27,282 nucleotides of DNA from IMG/VR virus record IMGVR_UViG_3300026097_000082, positions 1 to 27,282 of that record; one strand, given 5' to 3'. Under the pieces are notes generated by a model. That model did not search any database and was not told where the DNA came from. It saw only the letters and a list, made by a program, of their open reading frames with translations. Source of the stretch: a virus. Below, piece by piece: positions 1 to 17,842 of this stretch. A program made the translations under genes and the position numbers. Positions within the stretch are counted from its first letter, which is position 1. Each line of letters begins with the position of its first letter.

Positions 1-221
1 AGCTTCAAAGCGCATCTCCGTATTTCTTATCGGCATCCAACAGCGGTGGTTCATCAACCACCTATGTCACTGACGAGCATTACGCCAAGCCGGATTCCAA
101 CCGCGTGGTTCTTGTCGGCGGTAACGCATTTAATGGCGCGGCTGCGGGCGCGTTCTGCTTGGGTTCGGCTTATGCCTCTTCGCTTCGGTTTCGTTATTTC
201 GGCGCGCGGCTCGCCTTTTAA
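1..221 (+). CDS. DGR variable protein, C-terminal end (5' partial)
   Basis: The frame is open from base 3 and stops with TAA at 219-221, giving 72 residues of a protein that begins outside the window. The last 38 codons hold the variable repeat. They are rich in Gly/Ala/Ser/Phe/Tyr and end in a Gly-Ala-Arg-Leu-Ala-Phe tail, like the C-type-lectin-fold ends of known DGR target proteins such as Bordetella phage Mtd. In phages these targets are usually tail-tip or fibre receptor-binding proteins, and the nearby tail-fibre-like gene and lysis genes fit that. The role is inferred from the VR/TR relationship, because the N-terminal domain that would identify the structural class is missing. Codons that are AAY in the template read here as Phe, Ala, Gly, Ala, Tyr, Leu, Phe and Tyr, which is what adenine mutagenesis would give. 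Confidence 0.85.
   Translation, partial: LQSASPYFLSASNSGGSSTTYVTDEHYAKPDSNRVVLVGGNAFNGAAAGAFCLGSAYASSLRFRYFGARLAF
102..214 (+). repeat. DGR variable repeat (VR)
   Basis: This 113-bp segment at the 3' end of the variable protein gene aligns without gaps to 264-376. There are 27 mismatches. 26 lie where the template copy has A (changed to G, T or C) and one is a silent T-to-A at an Ala codon. The two copies diverge at once on both sides, so the boundaries are sharp. The VR ends five codons... more exactly seven bases, including the TAA, before base 222. A-specific substitution is the hallmark of retroelement mutagenic homing. Confidence 0.95.
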
Positions 222-2937: not shown

Positions 2938-3248
2938 TTCACGGGTTTCTTTACGGCATCCAGTTTGCCATCACATTTGCCATCGGCACACTGGTATTGG
3001 TCGGTCTTTTCAGGGGCGTTTGGGAAACAGCATCCCAGAGCAAAGGGCTGTTTTGGGCTATCGGGTGGTCATCGTACTTGGTCAGCTACTCGTCTTTTGT
3101 CAAAGCCATTGACGGGCCTCCATCGCCAGTTTTTGAGGTGTTCGCCACGGTGTCTCAATTAGTTTTCTACGCATTCGTTTTGACCTACATCCTCGTTTAC
3201 TTAATCACCAAGTGGAGCGACCATGAAGATTTCACAGCAGGGCATTGA
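2934..3248 (+). CDS. Small membrane protein in lysis cassette
   Basis: A 104-aa protein whose ATG overlaps the previous stop (ATGA) and whose 3' end overlaps the endolysin start by 26 bases, so all three are tightly coupled. Three hydrophobic stretches are seen, near residues 8-30, 38-58 and 68-93, rich in Phe, Tyr and Leu, with a short charged tail. It could be the true holin, an antiholin or another lysis regulator. No family is recognised. Overlaps on both sides argue that it is a genuine gene. Confidence 0.65.
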   Translation: MIHGFLYGIQFAITFAIGTLVLVGLFRGVWETASQSKGLFWAIGWSSYLVSYSSFVKAIDGPPSPVFEVFATVSQLVFYAFVLTYILVYLITKWSDHEDFTAGH

Positions 3249-3666
3249 CCTTATCAAAGACTTAGAGGGGTTTCGCTCTAAAGCCTATGCCGACCCTGCT
3301 AGTCGCACTGGACTGCCCATTACCATTGGATACGGCAGGGCGCATGGTGTGGTGTTGGGCGATGTCTGTACCCCCGCCCAAGCCGAGGAGTGGCTGAAGG
3401 AAGATTTGGAAGCAGTTGAGGACTGCATCAACTCTTATGTCAAAGTGCCACTGTCTCAGCATGCGTTCGATGCACTGGCATCCTTTACCTACAACCTTGG
3501 TTGTCACGACCTAGAGAAAAGCACCCTTTTGCGACTCTTAAATGCAGGTGATCGCAAAGCCGCTGCTGACGAATTCCATCGGTGGGTCTACAGCGGTGGG
3601 CGAATCGTCAACGGTTTAGTCAACCGCAGACAAAAGGAAGCTGATGTTTTTAAGCACGGTTATTGA
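3223..3666 (+). CDS. Endolysin, GH24 (T4/P22-type) lysozyme
   Basis: A 147-aa muramidase that hydrolyses the beta-1,4 bond between N-acetylmuramic acid and N-acetylglucosamine. The N-terminus holds the Glu-Gly-Phe-Arg catalytic segment (E15), the aspartate of Tyr-Ala-Asp-Pro (D24) and the Thr-Ile-Gly-Tyr-Gly motif (T34), the E-D-T triad of glycoside hydrolase family 24. The Asp-to-Thr spacing is a few residues longer than in T4 lysozyme. There is no signal peptide or signal-anchor segment, so it should be a cytoplasmic endolysin needing a holin. The C-terminal Asn-Arg-Arg-Gln-Lys-Glu motif is also typical. Its end overlaps the Rz-like gene. Confidence 0.93.
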   Translation: MKISQQGIDLIKDLEGFRSKAYADPASRTGLPITIGYGRAHGVVLGDVCTPAQAEEWLKEDLEAVEDCINSYVKVPLSQHAFDALASFTYNLGCHDLEKSTLLRLLNAGDRKAAADEFHRWVYSGGRIVNGLVNRRQKEADVFKHGY

Positions 3667-4147: not shown

Positions 4148-4615
4148 ATGAAGAAATCACTTTTAGCCGTTGCGCTGTCTTTCGGGGCAGTGAGCGCGGC
4201 ACATGCCTTTAGCGTGGATACTACCGGGCGCGTTGAAAACGCCTGCGTGTTCACCGAGGTGTCAGCGGGTGACTTTGGCTCTAACGCCATCGACCCAACC
4301 GCGCTGTCAACGTCTCACGTTGGCGGATCGGGTCCAGTCGTGTCGTTTACCTTTACGGGTCAACCCACTTTGGCCATCACTGGCCCAACCTCGTTTAGCA
4401 CTGCGCCAGAATTGGGCGAGATCGTGCCAGTTTTCACGACTCTCGCTTCAACCACGGCAAAAGGCTCGCTCACCTTTTCGGGCAACTCGGCCTCGACTGT
4501 CTACACGACAGGTTCTGGTGACACTGTGAACCTCGGTTTGCAAGTGTCTACTGGCTCAGAGACCAACTTCCCGGCTGGTGACTACGCCGCAGCCACTACG
4601 CTTACTTGCTCGTAA
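4148..4615 (+). CDS. Secreted pilin-like (fimbrial-subunit-like) protein
   Basis: A 155-aa protein with a clear Sec signal peptide (Met-Lys-Lys, hydrophobic core, Ala-His-Ala cleavage site near residue 20). The mature part is Thr/Ser/Gly/Val-rich and beta-type. It has Cys near its start (Val-Glu-Asn-Ala-Cys-Val-Phe) and a second Cys in the C-terminal Ala-Gly-Asp-Tyr-Ala-Ala-Ala-Thr-Thr-Leu-Thr-Cys-Ser, a terminal beta-strand pattern like fimbrial subunits and spore-coat-U/DUF4402-like proteins. ATG 4148 is fixed by AAGGAGG and the signal peptide. It heads a three-gene run in which every product is exported. Such a protein is not a standard phage virion part. A conversion factor or surface-modifying protein is inferred, not shown. 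Confidence 0.7.
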   Translation: MKKSLLAVALSFGAVSAAHAFSVDTTGRVENACVFTEVSAGDFGSNAIDPTALSTSHVGGSGPVVSFTFTGQPTLAITGPTSFSTAPELGEIVPVFTTLASTTAKGSLTFSGNSASTVYTTGSGDTVNLGLQVSTGSETNFPAGDYAAATTLTCS

Positions 4616-4618
4616 GCC

Positions 4619-5029
4619 ATGGCTAAGTCCAACATCCTAGTTGGGCTTCTGTGCGCTCTCACGGTTTCGGCTGTGGGGGCGCATGGAATCTCCCCAACCC
4701 GCTTACAAGCCCCGTCTGGGTCTAAAGTCATCGGCTTCCAATTCAAAGCCATGAACTTCTTGAGTCGGGCGGCCACTTATCGGGTCGAGTGCTACCGAAA
4801 TGCGCTTGCTTTTCCAGTCCCATGTTTGGCCATGCCAAAGCAATTCAGGCTATCAGCCAATGGTTCTAGACCCTTTCGAGTGCGTCTAGATACCAATGGC
4901 AAGGACGGTCTGTATTACGTTTGTACAGCCTACATACCGGAGCCGGGTGAGGCATCAGTTATTACCCGGACGTGCGCCAGATTCGGTGTCGGTGTTGACC
5001 CTGAAACCAGAGGGGCAGAACCAGAATGA
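4619..5029 (+). CDS. Secreted protein resembling a PapD-like chaperone N-domain
   Basis: A 136-aa protein with an N-terminal signal peptide (cleavage after Val-Gly-Ala near residue 21). The mature start Ile-Ser-Pro-Thr-Arg-Leu and the segment Pro-Lys-Gln-Phe-Arg-Leu-Ser-Ala-Asn-Gly-Ser-Arg-Pro-Phe-Arg-Val-Arg resemble the first Ig-like domain of periplasmic pilus chaperones (a Pro-x-x-Phe-x-Leu strand followed by a conserved Arg strand). Four cysteines are present. It is about half the length of a full two-domain chaperone. It begins three bases after the pilin-like gene and overlaps the next gene (ATGA), so the three are one operon. The resemblance is by pattern only and could be wrong. Confidence 0.6.
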   Translation: MAKSNILVGLLCALTVSAVGAHGISPTRLQAPSGSKVIGFQFKAMNFLSRAATYRVECYRNALAFPVPCLAMPKQFRLSANGSRPFRVRLDTNGKDGLYYVCTAYIPEPGEASVITRTCARFGVGVDPETRGAEPE

Positions 5030-5451
5030 GATTGCTCTACGCGCTCGCATTCGCTCCATGTGTGGCAATGGCAGACTTGGGACAACTGAGCCTGCCTGCG
5101 CCCCCGTCATGGCCAACAGGTAACGACAAGGTTCGCAGTGCCGATGGTGTGCAGTGCGAGACAAGCACGACCCCACGCGACTGGTACATGGACATTGGGA
5201 TTGTAGGTGGCCGAGGCAATGGCCTTGGGTCAAACTCCAACCCGACAATCATTGATGTCAACAGCACGTTCGTGAACAACAATTTTGAGCGCAACACGAT
5301 GGCTATCTATGCGCGGGTGGTCATCAACCTCGACAAACCCAAACCGCACATTGATTGTGGTCGTCTGTATCAACTAGAAATTGATCGCCTCAAGATGGAA
5401 ATTGAGTACCTGCAAATGGGTCAGGGCGTGGCAGGTGGGGTAGTGGAGTAA
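5026..5451 (+). CDS. Secreted protein of unknown function (141 aa)
   Basis: Starts on an ATGA overlap with the chaperone-like gene. It has a signal peptide (Ala-Met-Ala cleavage site near residue 16), a Gly/Asn-rich middle (Gly-Gly-Arg-Gly-Asn-Gly), two cysteines that could pair, and a C-terminal helix with heptad-like Leu/Ile spacing (about residues 115-132). No family is recognised. Being the third exported product in a coupled operon, it may partner with the pilin-like and chaperone-like proteins. Its stop codon lies directly against the first structured RNA element. Confidence 0.7.
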   Translation: MRLLYALAFAPCVAMADLGQLSLPAPPSWPTGNDKVRSADGVQCETSTTPRDWYMDIGIVGGRGNGLGSNSNPTIIDVNSTFVNNNFERNTMAIYARVVINLDKPKPHIDCGRLYQLEIDRLKMEIEYLQMGQGVAGGVVE

Positions 5452-14770: not shown

Positions 14771-14980
14771 ATGTCCACTTTATTAGAACCCGCTGACCTG
14801 ATCGACGCCTTGCAGGCTCGTGGCATGACCCAAGCCGAGATCGCCGAGATGACTGGCTCCACGCAAGCTACTATCTGCCGCATCCGTACCCAACGTATTA
14901 AGAAGACCAGCTACCAAGTCGGTCGCGCCTTGCATCAGCTCTATGAAGCCACGATGCAAAAGGACGCCGACCATGAGTAA
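14771..14980 (+). CDS. Cro-like helix-turn-helix regulator
   Basis: A 69-aa protein that is little more than one HTH: Met-Thr-Gln-Ala-Glu-Ile-Ala-Glu-Met-Thr-Gly-Ser-Thr-Gln-Ala-Thr-Ile-Cys-Arg-Ile (about residues 19-38) is a canonical helix-turn-helix. It is the first gene rightward, divergent from the repressor, and overlaps the primase-helicase start by 8 bases. Position and size suggest Cro function, that is, repression of the repressor promoter. It could instead be a CII-like activator. Confidence 0.8.
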   Translation: MSTLLEPADLIDALQARGMTQAEIAEMTGSTQATICRIRTQRIKKTSYQVGRALHQLYEATMQKDADHE

Positions 14981-17015
14981 TGTTCACCCCATTAACCCTT
15001 CTTTAAAGCTGCTTAACGCCCCCTCTTTAATGCGCGACCTTAAAGGCTGGCTGGTGTGGCGCTACGAGCCAAACCCCAACGGTGGCAAACAATTAAAGGT
15101 GCCGTATTACGTCAGCGGCTTGGCTCGCCAGGGCGAGCAGGGGTCGGCTGAGGATCGCAGCCGTTTGACCGACTTTGACACGGCCAAAGAGATCGCCATC
15201 AAACGCAATTACTCAGGTGTGGGGTTTTGTCTCATGCCCGAGTTCAACATCGTGGCAGGCGACTTTGATAACTGCGTCCAAGGCGAGCCGCAAGACGATG
15301 ACGCCACCGTGCACCCTGATGTCATGACCCTGGTTCACGGCACCTACGCTGAGTACTCGCCTTCGACCAATGGCGTTAGAGCCTTTTGGCGTGGCACCTC
15401 GCGTGGCAATATGAAAGATCCTCACGGCAAGCCCTTTGGCTTTGAAGTATTTTCCACCAAGGGCTTTGTTACTTTCACCGGCGCGGCCTTACACCAGACT
15501 GAGCTTGTGGGATGTGAAGATCACGTGGCCACTGTGAGCGATAAGCTTGACGCTTACATCAAGTCGCGCCTAATCGACGCGCCATCCAAGCACGATGACA
15601 CCGACCCGTCTGACCCGGCAAGCATCCTATCGACCTACAAGCCGTCAACGTTTACGCCCGCATCATCGGCCACCGCACTGCTTAACACCTTAAACCCGGA
15701 CATGTCTTACCCTGAGTGGGTCAAAGTCGGCATGGCGCTGCACCATGAGTACCAGGCAAGCGATGACGGGTTCACGCTCTGGGATACGTGGTCGTCTAAT
15801 GGCGAGAAGTACACCAGTGAAGACGATCTGCGTGCCAAGTGGGACAGCTTTAGCTCCAACCCAGAGCGCTATAACGTGACGTTCGGCACACTGCGCCACA
15901 TGGCCGCTAAAGCCACAAAAACGCCCGTGTCTGCATTGACGCAATCTAAGCCCGATACCGACAAGCCCGACCCGTTAGAGCCGTTTACCGTGTCAGAGTT
16001 TGCCGCGCAGTCCATTGACATCGAATGGCTCATTCATAACACGTTGCCCGTGGGTAACTTGTCGGTGCTGTACGGGGCGCCGGGTAGCGGCAAGACATTC
16101 ATGGCCATGGACATGTGCATGGCCGTTGCGTCTGGCACCAGGTGGCGCAATGACAGCTTAAAAGTCAAACAAGGTGCCGTGCTTTACGTGGCCTGCGAAG
16201 GGGGCGCGGGTTTGCGTAAACGGTTTCGCGGCTACGCTCAACAATTTAACGTCAACCTTGACGACATACCGCTTAAAGTCATTAACGCCAGTCCGAACCT
16301 ATTAGACGCCGCCACGGTTAACAATTTGCTGTACCACGCCTCTCAAATCGACAACTTGCAACTGATTGTCATTGATACGCTATCGCGTAGCCTCATTGGG
16401 GGCGATGAGAATTCCAGTCAAGACTTAGGCGCTTACCTCGATAACTGCCTTCACCTGTACCGTGAACTCGATGCTGGCGTGCTGCTCGTGCACCACAGCG
16501 GCAAGTCCAAGGCCGCTGGCATGCGTGGCCACTCCATGCTGCAAGGCACCGCTTACGCCGTTTTGGAATGTGAGTACGCTGCCGCTGGGCGCAGCGTTTT
16601 CATTGAGAAACAAAAAGACGGGGAAGCTGGGCAGAAGTACCCGTTCCAGCTATTTCCGGTCAGTCTTGGTGTGAACCGTGATGGCGATGAGATAACCACC
16701 TGCGTGGTTCAGCATATGGATCAAGTGACAGCGCCCAAAATGACAAAGGCAGGTGACGCTGCCAGGCAAGCTTTGTGCACCGCTGTCGAAGACGGCCAGT
16801 CTTTGAAGGTTGATGACTTGGTTAGCGACATCTTGCGTGAAAAGGACAAAGCTTTGAAAGCGGACGGCAAAGCGCCCATGTCGGAGAACACAAAACGCAA
16901 AGCCAAGCAAAGGTATAAAGACGGGCTGTTAGAAGTGGCCGAAACCTATCCCCACGCGGTCAAGATTGAAAAGGATGCCGCCATTATCCTAGACGAAAGC
17001 TTCTTTACCATTTAG
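14973..17015 (+). CDS. Primase-helicase (PrimPol-like, PriCT_2, RepA-type ATPase)
   Basis: A 680-aa replication initiator/helicase. The N-terminal part resembles phage prim-pol domains: a strand-loop Gly-Asp-Phe-Asp (about residues 96-99) with the acidic metal site, and Ser-Pro-Ser-Thr-Asn-Gly-Val-Arg-Ala-Phe-Trp. A PriCT_2-like helical segment follows (about 225-300). The C-terminal half is a RecA-fold RepA/AAA_25 ATPase: Walker A Gly-Ala-Pro-Gly-Ser-Gly-Lys-Thr (about 358-365), Walker B Leu-Ile-Val-Ile-Asp (about 454-458) and Val-His-His-Ser-Gly (about 496-500). ATG 14973 is preferred over the in-frame 14943 because the latter sits deep in the Cro-like gene. The iteron region starts just after its stop. 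Confidence 0.9.
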   Translation: MSNVHPINPSLKLLNAPSLMRDLKGWLVWRYEPNPNGGKQLKVPYYVSGLARQGEQGSAEDRSRLTDFDTAKEIAIKRNYSGVGFCLMPEFNIVAGDFDNCVQGEPQDDDATVHPDVMTLVHGTYAEYSPSTNGVRAFWRGTSRGNMKDPHGKPFGFEVFSTKGFVTFTGAALHQTELVGCEDHVATVSDKLDAYIKSRLIDAPSKHDDTDPSDPASILSTYKPSTFTPASSATALLNTLNPDMSYPEWVKVGMALHHEYQASDDGFTLWDTWSSNGEKYTSEDDLRAKWDSFSSNPERYNVTFGTLRHMAAKATKTPVSALTQSKPDTDKPDPLEPFTVSEFAAQSIDIEWLIHNTLPVGNLSVLYGAPGSGKTFMAMDMCMAVASGTRWRNDSLKVKQGAVLYVACEGGAGLRKRFRGYAQQFNVNLDDIPLKVINASPNLLDAATVNNLLYHASQIDNLQLIVIDTLSRSLIGGDENSSQDLGAYLDNCLHLYRELDAGVLLVHHSGKSKAAGMRGHSMLQGTAYAVLECEYAAAGRSVFIEKQKDGEAGQKYPFQLFPVSLGVNRDGDEITTCVVQHMDQVTAPKMTKAGDAARQALCTAVEDGQSLKVDDLVSDILREKDKALKADGKAPMSENTKRKAKQRYKDGLLEVAETYPHAVKIEKDAAIILDESFFTI

Positions 17016-17129
17016 TACAAATCTGCATTGTTATGCAAGATTTAGCTGTGACCAAAGCGTGACAAAGCGTGACAAAGCGTGACAAAAGCGTGACAAAAGC
17101 GTGACATTTTGTGACCAAACGTGACATTT

Positions 17130-17168
17130 ACCCCTAAAAAAGGCTCTTTTTTGGGGGTCAAAACCCCC
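17130..17168 (+). terminator. Overlapping alternative hairpins after the primase-helicase gene
   Basis: A 12-bp stem (17130-17141 with 17147-17158, one T-G pair, 5-nt loop) combines C4/G5 and A6/T6 blocks and resembles a terminator whose U tract lies within the stem. Its 3' arm GGGGGT (17153-17158) can instead pair with ACCCCC (17163-17168) across a 4-nt loop. The two structures exclude each other. It may terminate the rightward operon or shape the origin. Confidence 0.55.
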
Positions 17169-17333
17169 CTATAGTTGCCAGTTTGGTAACGTGTTGTGAC
17201 AAGCGTGACATCGGTGTGACATTTTTGAAAGCCTTATTCCATGCGGGTTTGCGGGCAGGTATGTCACAAAATGTCACGCTTTTGTCACAGCCAGGGTGAT
17301 TTTGGGACATGACTGACCAGTGTGACAGTACAA

Positions 17334-17358
17334 ACCCCCCCCTTTAGGGGGGTGTTTT
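17334..17358 (+). terminator. GC hairpin within the iteron region
   Basis: Stem ACCCCCC/GGGGGGT (17334-17340 with 17347-17353), 6-nt loop, followed by GTTTT. It lies between the last forward GTGAC and the inverted GTCAC cluster. It could terminate rightward transcripts or be part of the origin. Confidence 0.45.
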
Positions 17359-17447
17359 GTCACGCTTGTCACGTCACAGATTTCGGTCACGGTTTGATGA
17401 TAGAAATTTATCGTGGAAAGCGTGGCGAGAAATTAGGGGTGGGGTGT

Positions 17448-17522
17448 TTGAAATGCGCCTTACTGGGGTCAATTGAAATGCGCCTTACTGGGGTCAATTG
17501 AAATGCGCCTTATTGGGGTGAA
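17448..17522. repeat. Three tandem 25-bp repeats
   Basis: Units at 17448-17472, 17473-17497 and 17498-17522. The first two are identical and the third differs at two bases. Each begins TTGA and ends TCAA (TGAA in the third), so junctions read TCAATTGA, a palindrome. The last copy overlaps the 3' end of the minus-strand HTH gene. They look like direct binding sites or a recent slippage expansion next to the iterons. Confidence 0.85.
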
Positions 17523-17842
17523 AAATTATCCGTGGGGAAAGGTGCCGGGTTCTGGGTAGCATCAGGTGCCGGGTTCTGGGTAGCATCAGGTGCCGGGTTC
17601 TGGGTAGCATCAGGTGCCGGGTTCTGAGTAGCATCAGGTGCCGGGTTCTCGGTTCTGGGTTCTGGTTGGTTGGTTTTCAACAAGAACAACTCCCACGTGG
17701 CTAAAGGCATTTTGTACCGGCCTAGTTCCCATTTACGCCAGGCAGCAGAATCAGAAAGGTGCACCAGTAAGGCCGCCTGGTGCTGGGTAAGCTTGGCATT
17801 AAGGCGAGCTGTTCGGATCTGTTCAGGTGTCGGGTTAGTCAT
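17510..17842 (-). CDS. HTH protein with octapeptide-repeat tail
   Basis: A 110-aa protein. The first 58 residues look like a phage XRE-type HTH (Leu-Thr-Gln-His-Gln-Ala-Ala, then Ala-Ala-Trp-Arg-Lys-Trp-Glu-Leu-Gly-Arg-Tyr-Lys-Met-Pro-Leu). The tail is a chain of Asn-Pro-Ala-Pro-Asp-Ala-Thr-Gln repeats, four full units. ATG 17842 overlaps the upstream stop by 8 bases and has GGAAG. Proximity to the iterons suggests it may bind there, but that is a guess. Confidence 0.75.
   Translation of the reverse strand: MTNPTPEQIRTARLNAKLTQHQAALLVHLSDSAAWRKWELGRYKMPLATWELFLLKTNQPEPRTENPAPDATQNPAPDATQNPAPDATQNPAPDATQNPAPFPTDNFSPQ
17541..17650. repeat. Tandem 24-bp coding repeats
   Basis: Four full 24-bp units (17541-17564, 17565-17588, 17589-17612, 17613-17636, the last with one change) plus a partial fifth. 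On the minus strand they encode the octapeptide repeat of the HTH protein tail. Near-identity at DNA level points to recent slippage, and copy number is likely to vary between relatives. Confidence 0.9.

What the first reader, a model, noticed from the sequence alone, without database searches (positions are those of the whole stretch)
17048..17390. Helically phased GTGAC iterons and inverted GTCAC cluster
Eight GTGAC motifs occur at alternating 10 and 11 bp steps (about 10.4 on average), so the same face of the helix is presented eight times. More copies continue forward and then inverted to the right, with hairpins between blocks. Together with the adjacent primase-helicase this is a likely replication origin with a cooperative initiator filament.
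Basis: partly seen in the sequence, partly recalled or inferred. Interest (0 to 1): 0.7.

Follow-up and report, generated by a model that had tools for sequence, protein, structure and literature searches.

The report
Phage replication origin with repeated boxes
Right behind its primase-helicase gene this phage carries a cluster of 19 copies of a 5-letter DNA word, which is most likely the place where copying of its genome starts; related phages have a similar cluster in the same area but built from their own words, some of them around one short stretch that is the same.

Summary
In detail: 19 GTGAC boxes (12 forward, 7 inverted) lie in the 495-bp intergenic stretch between the primase-helicase stop and a convergent gene, against a shuffle mean of 1.2 and maximum of 6. 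The first eight step by 11,10,10,11,11,10,10 bp.

None of 34 relatives of the primase-helicase (33-46% identical in the best segment) has a GTGAC array. Instead, 14 of 46 unique family loci, the window included, have six or more copies of one 7-mer in both orientations (shuffle maximum 4). In 12 of these 14 the cluster lies on the 3' side of the primase gene, and nearly every phage has its own word. So position and layout recur while the word changes, as expected of replication-origin iterons that follow their own initiator.

The window's cluster encloses CCATGCGGGTTTGCGG. It belongs to a sharply bounded ~22-bp core (CCAGYAACCATGCGGGTTTGCG) found in 70 viral contigs. Of 60 core windows, 20 carry five or more copies of one 7-mer, against 9 of 582 control windows.

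Best reading: an iteron-type phage origin, with the primase-helicase as the likeliest initiator. Binding and origin function are inferred, not shown. The precedent is the pRN1 origin, 3' of its primase-helicase gene.

The parts
14943..17015 (+). Primase-helicase gene (690 aa): NrS-1-like primase-polymerase fold, PriCT_2, RSF1010 RepA-like AAA_25 helicase, C-terminal three-helix plus hairpin domain
   Evidence: Pfam AAA_25 1.4e-39, PriCT_2 7.6e-22; Foldseek 1nlf and NrS-1 7rr4/6jon; RepA Z 23.7; AlphaFold2
17048..17125 (+). Block 1: eight GTGAC boxes at 10/11-bp steps
17130..17158 (.). Hairpin between blocks
   Evidence: DNA fold of 17128-17195, z -2.9
17196..17220 (+). Block 2: three GTGAC boxes (steps 9, 11)
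17237..17254 (+). Core TTCCATGCGGGTTTGCGG; its last 16 nt match the conserved core
17263..17288 (-). Block 3: three inverted boxes; perfect inverted repeat of 17090-17115
17322..17326 (+). Single forward box
17330..17360 (.). C/G-rich hairpin, terminator-like on both strands
17359..17390 (-). Block 4: four inverted boxes (steps 9, 5, 13)
17448..17522 (+). Three 25-bp direct repeats TTGAAATGCGCCTTACTGGGGTCAA; belonging to the origin is uncertain
17510..17842 (-). Convergent gene, weakly repressor-like (MTNPTPEQ...), with QNPAPDAT-type repeats; a possible partner protein
   Evidence: phrog_7950 E 8e-4

Best explanation
The region 17016-17390 is the phage's origin of theta replication. The GTGAC boxes are iterons: an initiator binds them one per helical turn in block 1 and on the inverted blocks around the central core, opens the duplex nearby, and the primase-helicase is loaded there to unwind and prime, with the phage PolA and the ssDNA-binding protein then extending. 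The likeliest initiator is the primase-helicase itself through its C-terminal domain, acting on sites just behind its own gene, as proposed for pRN1. Shown here: boxes, layout, position, recurrence of such clusters with other words in relatives, and a conserved core. Inferred: binding, melting, loading, direction and which protein binds.
For: Local excess and helical step of boxes. Array between convergent genes, so not a promoter or operator of either neighbour. 12 of 14 strong both-orientation clusters among 46 unique family loci lie on the 3' side of the primase, with mostly phage-specific words. In a separate sample chosen by GTGACA spacing, the nearest genes (96 of 120 loci) are led by initiators, helicase loaders and primases, against scattered families at 13/14-bp spacing (27 of 42 loci). 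Core shared with L322, L323, L047, L091, L448. GC-skew sign change near 16.5 kb. Replication genes in the same genome: PolA, Enc34-type ssDNA-binding protein and DUF2800. Published precedent: pRN1 origin 3' of its primase-helicase gene (PMC4234260, passages and section 18).
Against: No experiment on this phage. 32 of 46 unique family loci show no strong cluster within the fetched flanks; Caulobacter phage GB2A has none. Of the 12 on the 3' side, 4 start 1.25-2.1 kb behind the called stop, beyond other genes or a cut gene call. GTGAC itself is not conserved with the protein. The GC-skew change also sits near gene-strand switches. The C-terminal domain model is weak (mean pLDDT 69) and has no significant PDB match.
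Confidence: 0.66

Rival explanations
1. Still an origin, but the boxes are read by a separate small protein (the Cro-like 14771-14980 or the repressor-like 17510-17842 protein) or by a host factor, and the primase-helicase is recruited afterwards, as RepC does for RepA in RSF1010.
For: The helicase half is closest to RSF1010 RepA (Z 23.7), which works with a separate iteron binder (PMC4234260 section 18). Relatives with the same C-terminal domain type lack arrays. Similar GTGAC arrays occur with unrelated helicases: VapE (L054), D5/DUF5906 (L124, L038, L066), Toprim-AAA_25 (L025).
Against: No homologous small gene was found common to the array loci beyond the enterobacterial group; relatives of the 17510-17842 protein were not found. 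Other explanations for absent arrays (origin elsewhere) remain.
Confidence: 0.2
2. The boxes are template recognition sites for primer synthesis: GTGA is a start site for the primase-polymerase domain, and the array offers many priming sites on both strands.
For: NrS-1 primase-polymerase, a Foldseek match of the N-domain, uses 5'-GTGA-3'/GTGG as an efficient primase recognition site (PMC8718748, passages). All 19 boxes contain GTGA.
Against: Of the 11 cluster words on the 3' side in relatives and window, 3 contain GTG on either strand (CGTGACA, TGCACCA, GTGCAAC). A 3-4 nt site needs no helical spacing.
Confidence: 0.07
3. A centromere-like partition site: direct repeats one turn apart bound by a ribbon-helix-helix protein, as in ParR/parC (recalled).
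For: Repeat step of 10-11 bp; a core-bearing repeat region on a plasmid lies in the same stretch as a ParM/StbA gene.
Against: The phage has an integrase and S24 repressor, so no need of partition is evident. None of the 16 window proteins scanned with Pfam matched ParM or ParR, but not all genes were scanned.
Confidence: 0.04
4. Neutral repeat expansion of a 10/11-bp unit next to a bidirectional terminator, without function.
For: Near-identical spacers in boxes 2-5; pure 10-bp GTGAC tandem repeats exist in many bacterial genomes.
Against: Inverted blocks, divergent spacers with conserved boxes, recurrence of other words at the 3' side of relatives' primase genes and the shared core.
Confidence: 0.03

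Closest known systems
Origin of crenarchaeal plasmid pRN1, 3' of the orf904 primase-helicase gene (PMC4234260)
   Same: Position directly behind a primase-polymerase-helicase gene; place kept while sequence varies; authors extend the idea to phages with PriCT_2 primases (BIP-1/BPP-1).
   Different: pRN1 uses a ~100-bp stem-loop and an SF3 helicase; the authors found no origin iterons in BIP-1. Here there are 19 iterons and a RepA-like helicase; BPP-1 has four inverted AACGAGGCA boxes on the 3' side of its primase gene.
Satellite phage P4 alpha protein and its repeats (as told in PMC4234260; details recalled)
   Same: One protein with primase, helicase and a C-terminal winged helix that binds short repeats.
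   Different: P4 alpha has a Toprim primase (PMC4234260) and an SF3 helicase (recalled); its iteron differs from GTGAC (recalled).
RSF1010 oriV with RepA, RepB', RepC (PMC4234260 section 18; details recalled)
   Same: Helicase half is closest in fold to RepA; origin of iterons plus priming elements.
   Different: Three separate proteins, 20-bp iterons (recalled), hairpin priming sites; the core here does not fold better than shuffles.
Origins inside replisome organizer or O-like genes (Tuc2009 annotation; enterobacterial phages)
   Same: GTGAC arrays at 10/11-bp steps occur inside such genes; Tuc2009 rep, annotated as containing the origin, has CAACCA at 11-bp steps.
   Different: There the array lies inside the initiator gene; here it lies behind it. 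Tuc2009 and TP901-1 rep have no GTGAC array.

Membership tests
Iteron-type theta origin | Multiple short repeats beside the initiator gene | tested here: met
   19 boxes, shuffle maximum 6, starting 33 bp behind the primase-helicase stop; that this gene is the initiator is inferred
Iteron-type theta origin | Nucleotide skew changes sign at the site | tested here: inconclusive
   Cumulative GC skew minimum about 15-16.7 kb, positive at 16.5-18.2 kb, but gene strands switch nearby
Iteron-type theta origin | Initiator binds the repeats and replication starts there | not testable with these tools
   needs footprint and marker-frequency experiments
Iteron-type theta origin | AT-rich unwinding element | not tested
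   only 1-kb composition windows were run
pRN1/P4-type origin behind a primase-helicase gene | Archaeo-eukaryotic primase-polymerase N-domain | tested here: met
   Foldseek to NrS-1 primase-polymerase, E 4e-10; PriCT_2
pRN1/P4-type origin behind a primase-helicase gene | SF3 helicase domain | tested here: not met
   AAA_25; RepA of RSF1010 Z 23.7
pRN1/P4-type origin behind a primase-helicase gene | C-terminal winged-helix DNA-binding domain | tested here: inconclusive
   Three helices plus hairpin, mean pLDDT 69; no PDB match at E 0.001 or better
pRN1/P4-type origin behind a primase-helicase gene | Origin 3' of the gene | tested here: inconclusive
   Position fits here and in 12 of 14 clusters; origin function not shown
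RSF1010-type origin | Hairpin priming sites (ssi) | tested here: inconclusive
   Core folds no better than shuffles; two other hairpins exist
Replisome-organizer-type origin | Array inside the initiator gene | tested here: not met
   Array lies in the intergenic stretch 17016-17509
MatP matS site GTGACRNYGTCAC (recalled) | GTGAC and GTCAC three bases apart | tested here: not met
   No + box of the array is followed by a - box 8 bp on (positions)
ParR/parC centromere (recalled) | ParM/ParR genes beside 10-11-bp direct repeats | tested here: inconclusive
   No ParM/ParR among the window proteins scanned with Pfam; not all genes scanned

The most novel reading that the evidence does not exclude
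A ~22-bp element CCAGYAACCATGCGGGTTTGCG is an undescribed origin core shared by phages and some plasmids with different initiators. It is sharply bounded, set among box clusters whose word is particular to each element, and may be read by a host replication factor, so that the boxes act as swappable specificity parts around a common start site.
Probability: 0.3. Interest if true: 0.8.

Novelty: new variant of a known kind. Interest (0 to 1): 0.55.

Why it matters
If right, it gives a way to find replication origins of many uncultured phages from sequence: look on the 3' side of a PriCT_2 primase-helicase gene for a both-orientation cluster of one 6-7 bp word, and in a subset for the CCATGCGGGTTTGCG core. 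It makes a model phage testable (Bordetella BPP-1: four inverted AACGAGGCA boxes), where the printed account found no origin iterons in its near-identical relative BIP-1 (PMC4234260 section 18). And it raises a question: why does one short core stay constant while the words around it change?

Tried and rejected
GTGAC as a universal origin code: considered, not supported as stated. Collapsed, 81 groups, 50 with five or more copies. The reversed word ACAGTG with the same spacing gave 82 contigs in a complete scan; the 80 loci analysed make 55 groups, 22 with five or more copies. So GTGACA is favoured by an unknown, perhaps small factor; the totals cannot be compared. Spacing 13/14 gave 42 contigs.

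RNA family: none over the window. TP901-1 rep has no GTGAC. No close relative by the primase-helicase or by the 17510-17842 protein. An early idea that all words end in RCA failed on the wider set. Inverted or direct 6-mers within 60 nt on both sides of the core were little or no more common than in controls: 35 of 57 vs 514 of 1011, 39 of 57 vs 660 of 1011. The core as a hairpin: not supported (the fourth sequence folded there, from L526, was off the core by my coordinates). Exact core in bacterial genomes: 0 of 7 and 0 of 398; this is weak, since at the contig density only about two would be expected (estimate). Pseudomonas phages PAJU2 and Marin have 85% core matches (E 7) between small, mostly hypothetical genes, not beside a named replication gene. 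Core matches in IncU/IncP KPC plasmids are 18 nt (E 2), one lineage as far as looked at, and not convincing. Plasmid p47S has a one-mismatch core about 40 bp before its replication gene (E 6). Papers: no paper in the held library contains ACCATGCGGGTT or AACCCGCATGGTT as text; the other searches showed nothing on this array in their listings. A winged-helix match for the C-terminal domain was not found.

Full report
What was checked. The window is a 27,282-bp virus record held alone. GTGAC occurs 61 times in it, as expected by chance (57.3), but 19 copies lie in the 495-bp gap between the primase-helicase stop (17015) and the convergent gene at 17510. Shuffles of that gap give a mean of 1.24 and a maximum of 6 in 2000. 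Block 1 has eight forward boxes with steps 11,10,10,11,11,10,10. Random placement of eight boxes in 78 bp gives all gaps of 5 or 6 with P about 1e-5. Spacers 2-5 are near copies, so some of this may be duplication. A 26-nt perfect inverted repeat links blocks 1 and 3. Two hairpins separate blocks.

Neighbourhood. On the minus strand to the left lie integrase, VRR-NUC, SNF2-type helicase, PolA, Enc34-type ssDNA-binding protein, DUF2800 and an S24 repressor; then Cro-like and primase-helicase on the plus strand. The array sits between convergent gene ends, so it is not a promoter of either. GC skew is negative from about 5.3 kb to 16 kb and positive at 16.5-18.2 kb; gene strand also switches near there.

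The protein. Pfam gives PriCT_2 and AAA_25. The AlphaFold2 model (mean pLDDT 79.2) matches RSF1010 RepA in the middle (Foldseek E 1.4e-10; Z 23.7, rmsd 2.6, 218 aligned) and NrS-1 primase-polymerase (E 4e-10). The last 100 residues, modelled alone, show three helices and a hairpin (pLDDT 69) with no significant PDB match.

Test by relatives. A two-sequence profile found 80 relatives in viral contigs. In the 34 best-ranked (L294-L327; 33-46% identity in the best segment; L322/L323 share the N half only) no GTGAC cluster occurs near the gene. But directly behind the stop, several have clusters of another word in both orientations: L298 TGGGACA (from +281), L320 GCATCCC, L321 TGCACCA, L322 and L323 TAGGGCA/AGGTAGG, and L296 TGCAAC-type some 600 bp on. 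Systematically, 46 unique loci were scored for the densest 7-mer in 350 bp with both orientations. Shuffled sequence never passed 4; 14 loci reached 6 or more. Twelve of the 14 lie on the 3' side of the gene, starting from -148 to about +2100 of the stop; the two others (L326 a 15-bp tandem, L299) lie on the 5' side of the stop. The remaining 32 loci show none in the fetched flanks. L007 is Curvibacter phage PCA1 (AGGTTCC, shared with L368). In BPP-1 four AACGAGGCA boxes form two inverted 9-bp pairs about 0.5 kb behind the primase, below the threshold. L322 is informative: it keeps the N-terminal half of the window protein (45% identity in the best segment), has a VapE-like second half, and has another word.

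The core. Between block 2 and block 3 the window has TTCCATGCGGGTTTGCGG. A search of all sequences held then, allowing 3 mismatches in 18, gave 10 hits with 2.6 expected, which alone is weak; exact CCATGCGGGTTT gave 7 with 0.46 expected: window, L322, L323, L047, L091, L448 and L401, the first six in repeat contexts. L448 came from the reversed-word control scan. An independent scan for GYARCCATGCGGGTTTGCG found 70 viral contigs (complete); about two would be expected if the collection holds some 60 Gb (my estimate). The window itself carries a divergent left end (TTATTCC for AGYAACC). Conservation stops abruptly: CCAG through GCGG, then nothing (54 loci). Of 60 core windows, 20 have five or more copies of one 7-mer, against 9 of 582 random windows of the same loci (near-identical pairs remain among the 60, and controls were not limited to intergenic DNA). 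Nearest long genes of these loci (80 proteins) hit PHROGs families led by an unknown family (7 members) and then primases, primase/helicases and helicases, with resolvases and others. In Pseudomonas phages USP_18 and USP_25 a 22-nt match lies in a gene named replication initiation protein (E 0.01). A P. aeruginosa plasmid carries four tandem units of 128 bp, each with the core between inverted TTAGAACG boxes. Function of the core is unknown; it does not fold better than shuffles.

GTGAC elsewhere. One near-identical group of 23 weighs heavily. In 40 of the 43 loci with the commonest protein group the array lies inside the gene. Arrays also lie at the 3' end of primase-helicases of other types. 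The sequence of one enterobacterial array region is in 1721 of 5426 E. coli genomes. The control word ACAGTG also gives clusters, so this is not a universal code.

How it probably works. An initiator binds the boxes, one per turn in block 1, and the inverted blocks around the core; DNA opens; the RepA-like helicase half is loaded and the primase half primes. Only sequence facts are shown; binding, melting and loading are inferred. Literature: pRN1's presumed origin is a stem-loop behind its primase-helicase gene and its authors point to PriCT_2 phages (PMC4234260; passages and section 18 part 1). NrS-1 primase-polymerase starts at GTGA or GTGG (PMC8718748; passages), which makes the priming-site rival worth a test. 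PMC5862659 groups NrS-1-like with pRN1-like primases (passages). PMC7145576 (passages) describes a satellite origin with iterons.

Verdict. The origin reading is likely but unproven. The proposed N-domain binder is not supported. The array is a new variant of a known kind; the shared core among changing boxes is the part most worth following.

Noticed in passing
window 99-208, 261-370, 449-1489: Diversity-generating retroelement: template 261-370 and variable repeat 99-208 differ only or nearly only at template A (all 19 mismatches in the best 70-nt pair), next to a reverse transcriptase gene.
   Followed up: partly
window 17540-17659: 24-bp tandem repeat inside the minus-strand gene 17510-17842, giving QNPAPDAT repeats in the protein.
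   Followed up: no
window 17448-17522: Three 25-bp direct repeats, two of them with TTGA...TCAA ends, just right of the array; possible second iteron set.
   Followed up: no
window 4148-5448: Three genes for small secreted-looking proteins between lysis genes and integrase, without Pfam match; possibly cargo genes.
   Followed up: partly
L015 3908-4055; L128 about 3200-3360: Enterobacterial prophages carry a GTGAC array inside the O-like/DnaT-like gene next to YdaT; 1720 of 5426 E. coli genomes hold at least 80% of the region.
   Followed up: partly
L526 2700-3230: P. aeruginosa plasmid pPae-WC20-001-02: four tandem units of 128 bp with the core between inverted TTAGAACG boxes, between mobI and a hypothetical gene.
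   Followed up: partly
L296 about +690 and L320 about +90 from the primase stop: Both share CGGGTCTATAGAC amid different box words; perhaps a second core type.
   Followed up: no
L174 7437-7476: Tuc2009 rep, annotated as containing the origin, has CAACCA four times at 11-bp steps.
   Followed up: no
L182, L184, L207: A Dehalococcoidia chromosome has GTGAC arrays with mixed 10/11 steps and varied spacers in three fetched stretches.
   Followed up: no
L100 2167-2247: A GTGAC array of 11 boxes lies between genes that look structural, away from replication genes.
   Followed up: no
L374 1109-1211: BPP-1: two inverted pairs of AACGAGGCA boxes at 9-bp steps, about 0.5 kb behind the primase gene.
   Followed up: partly
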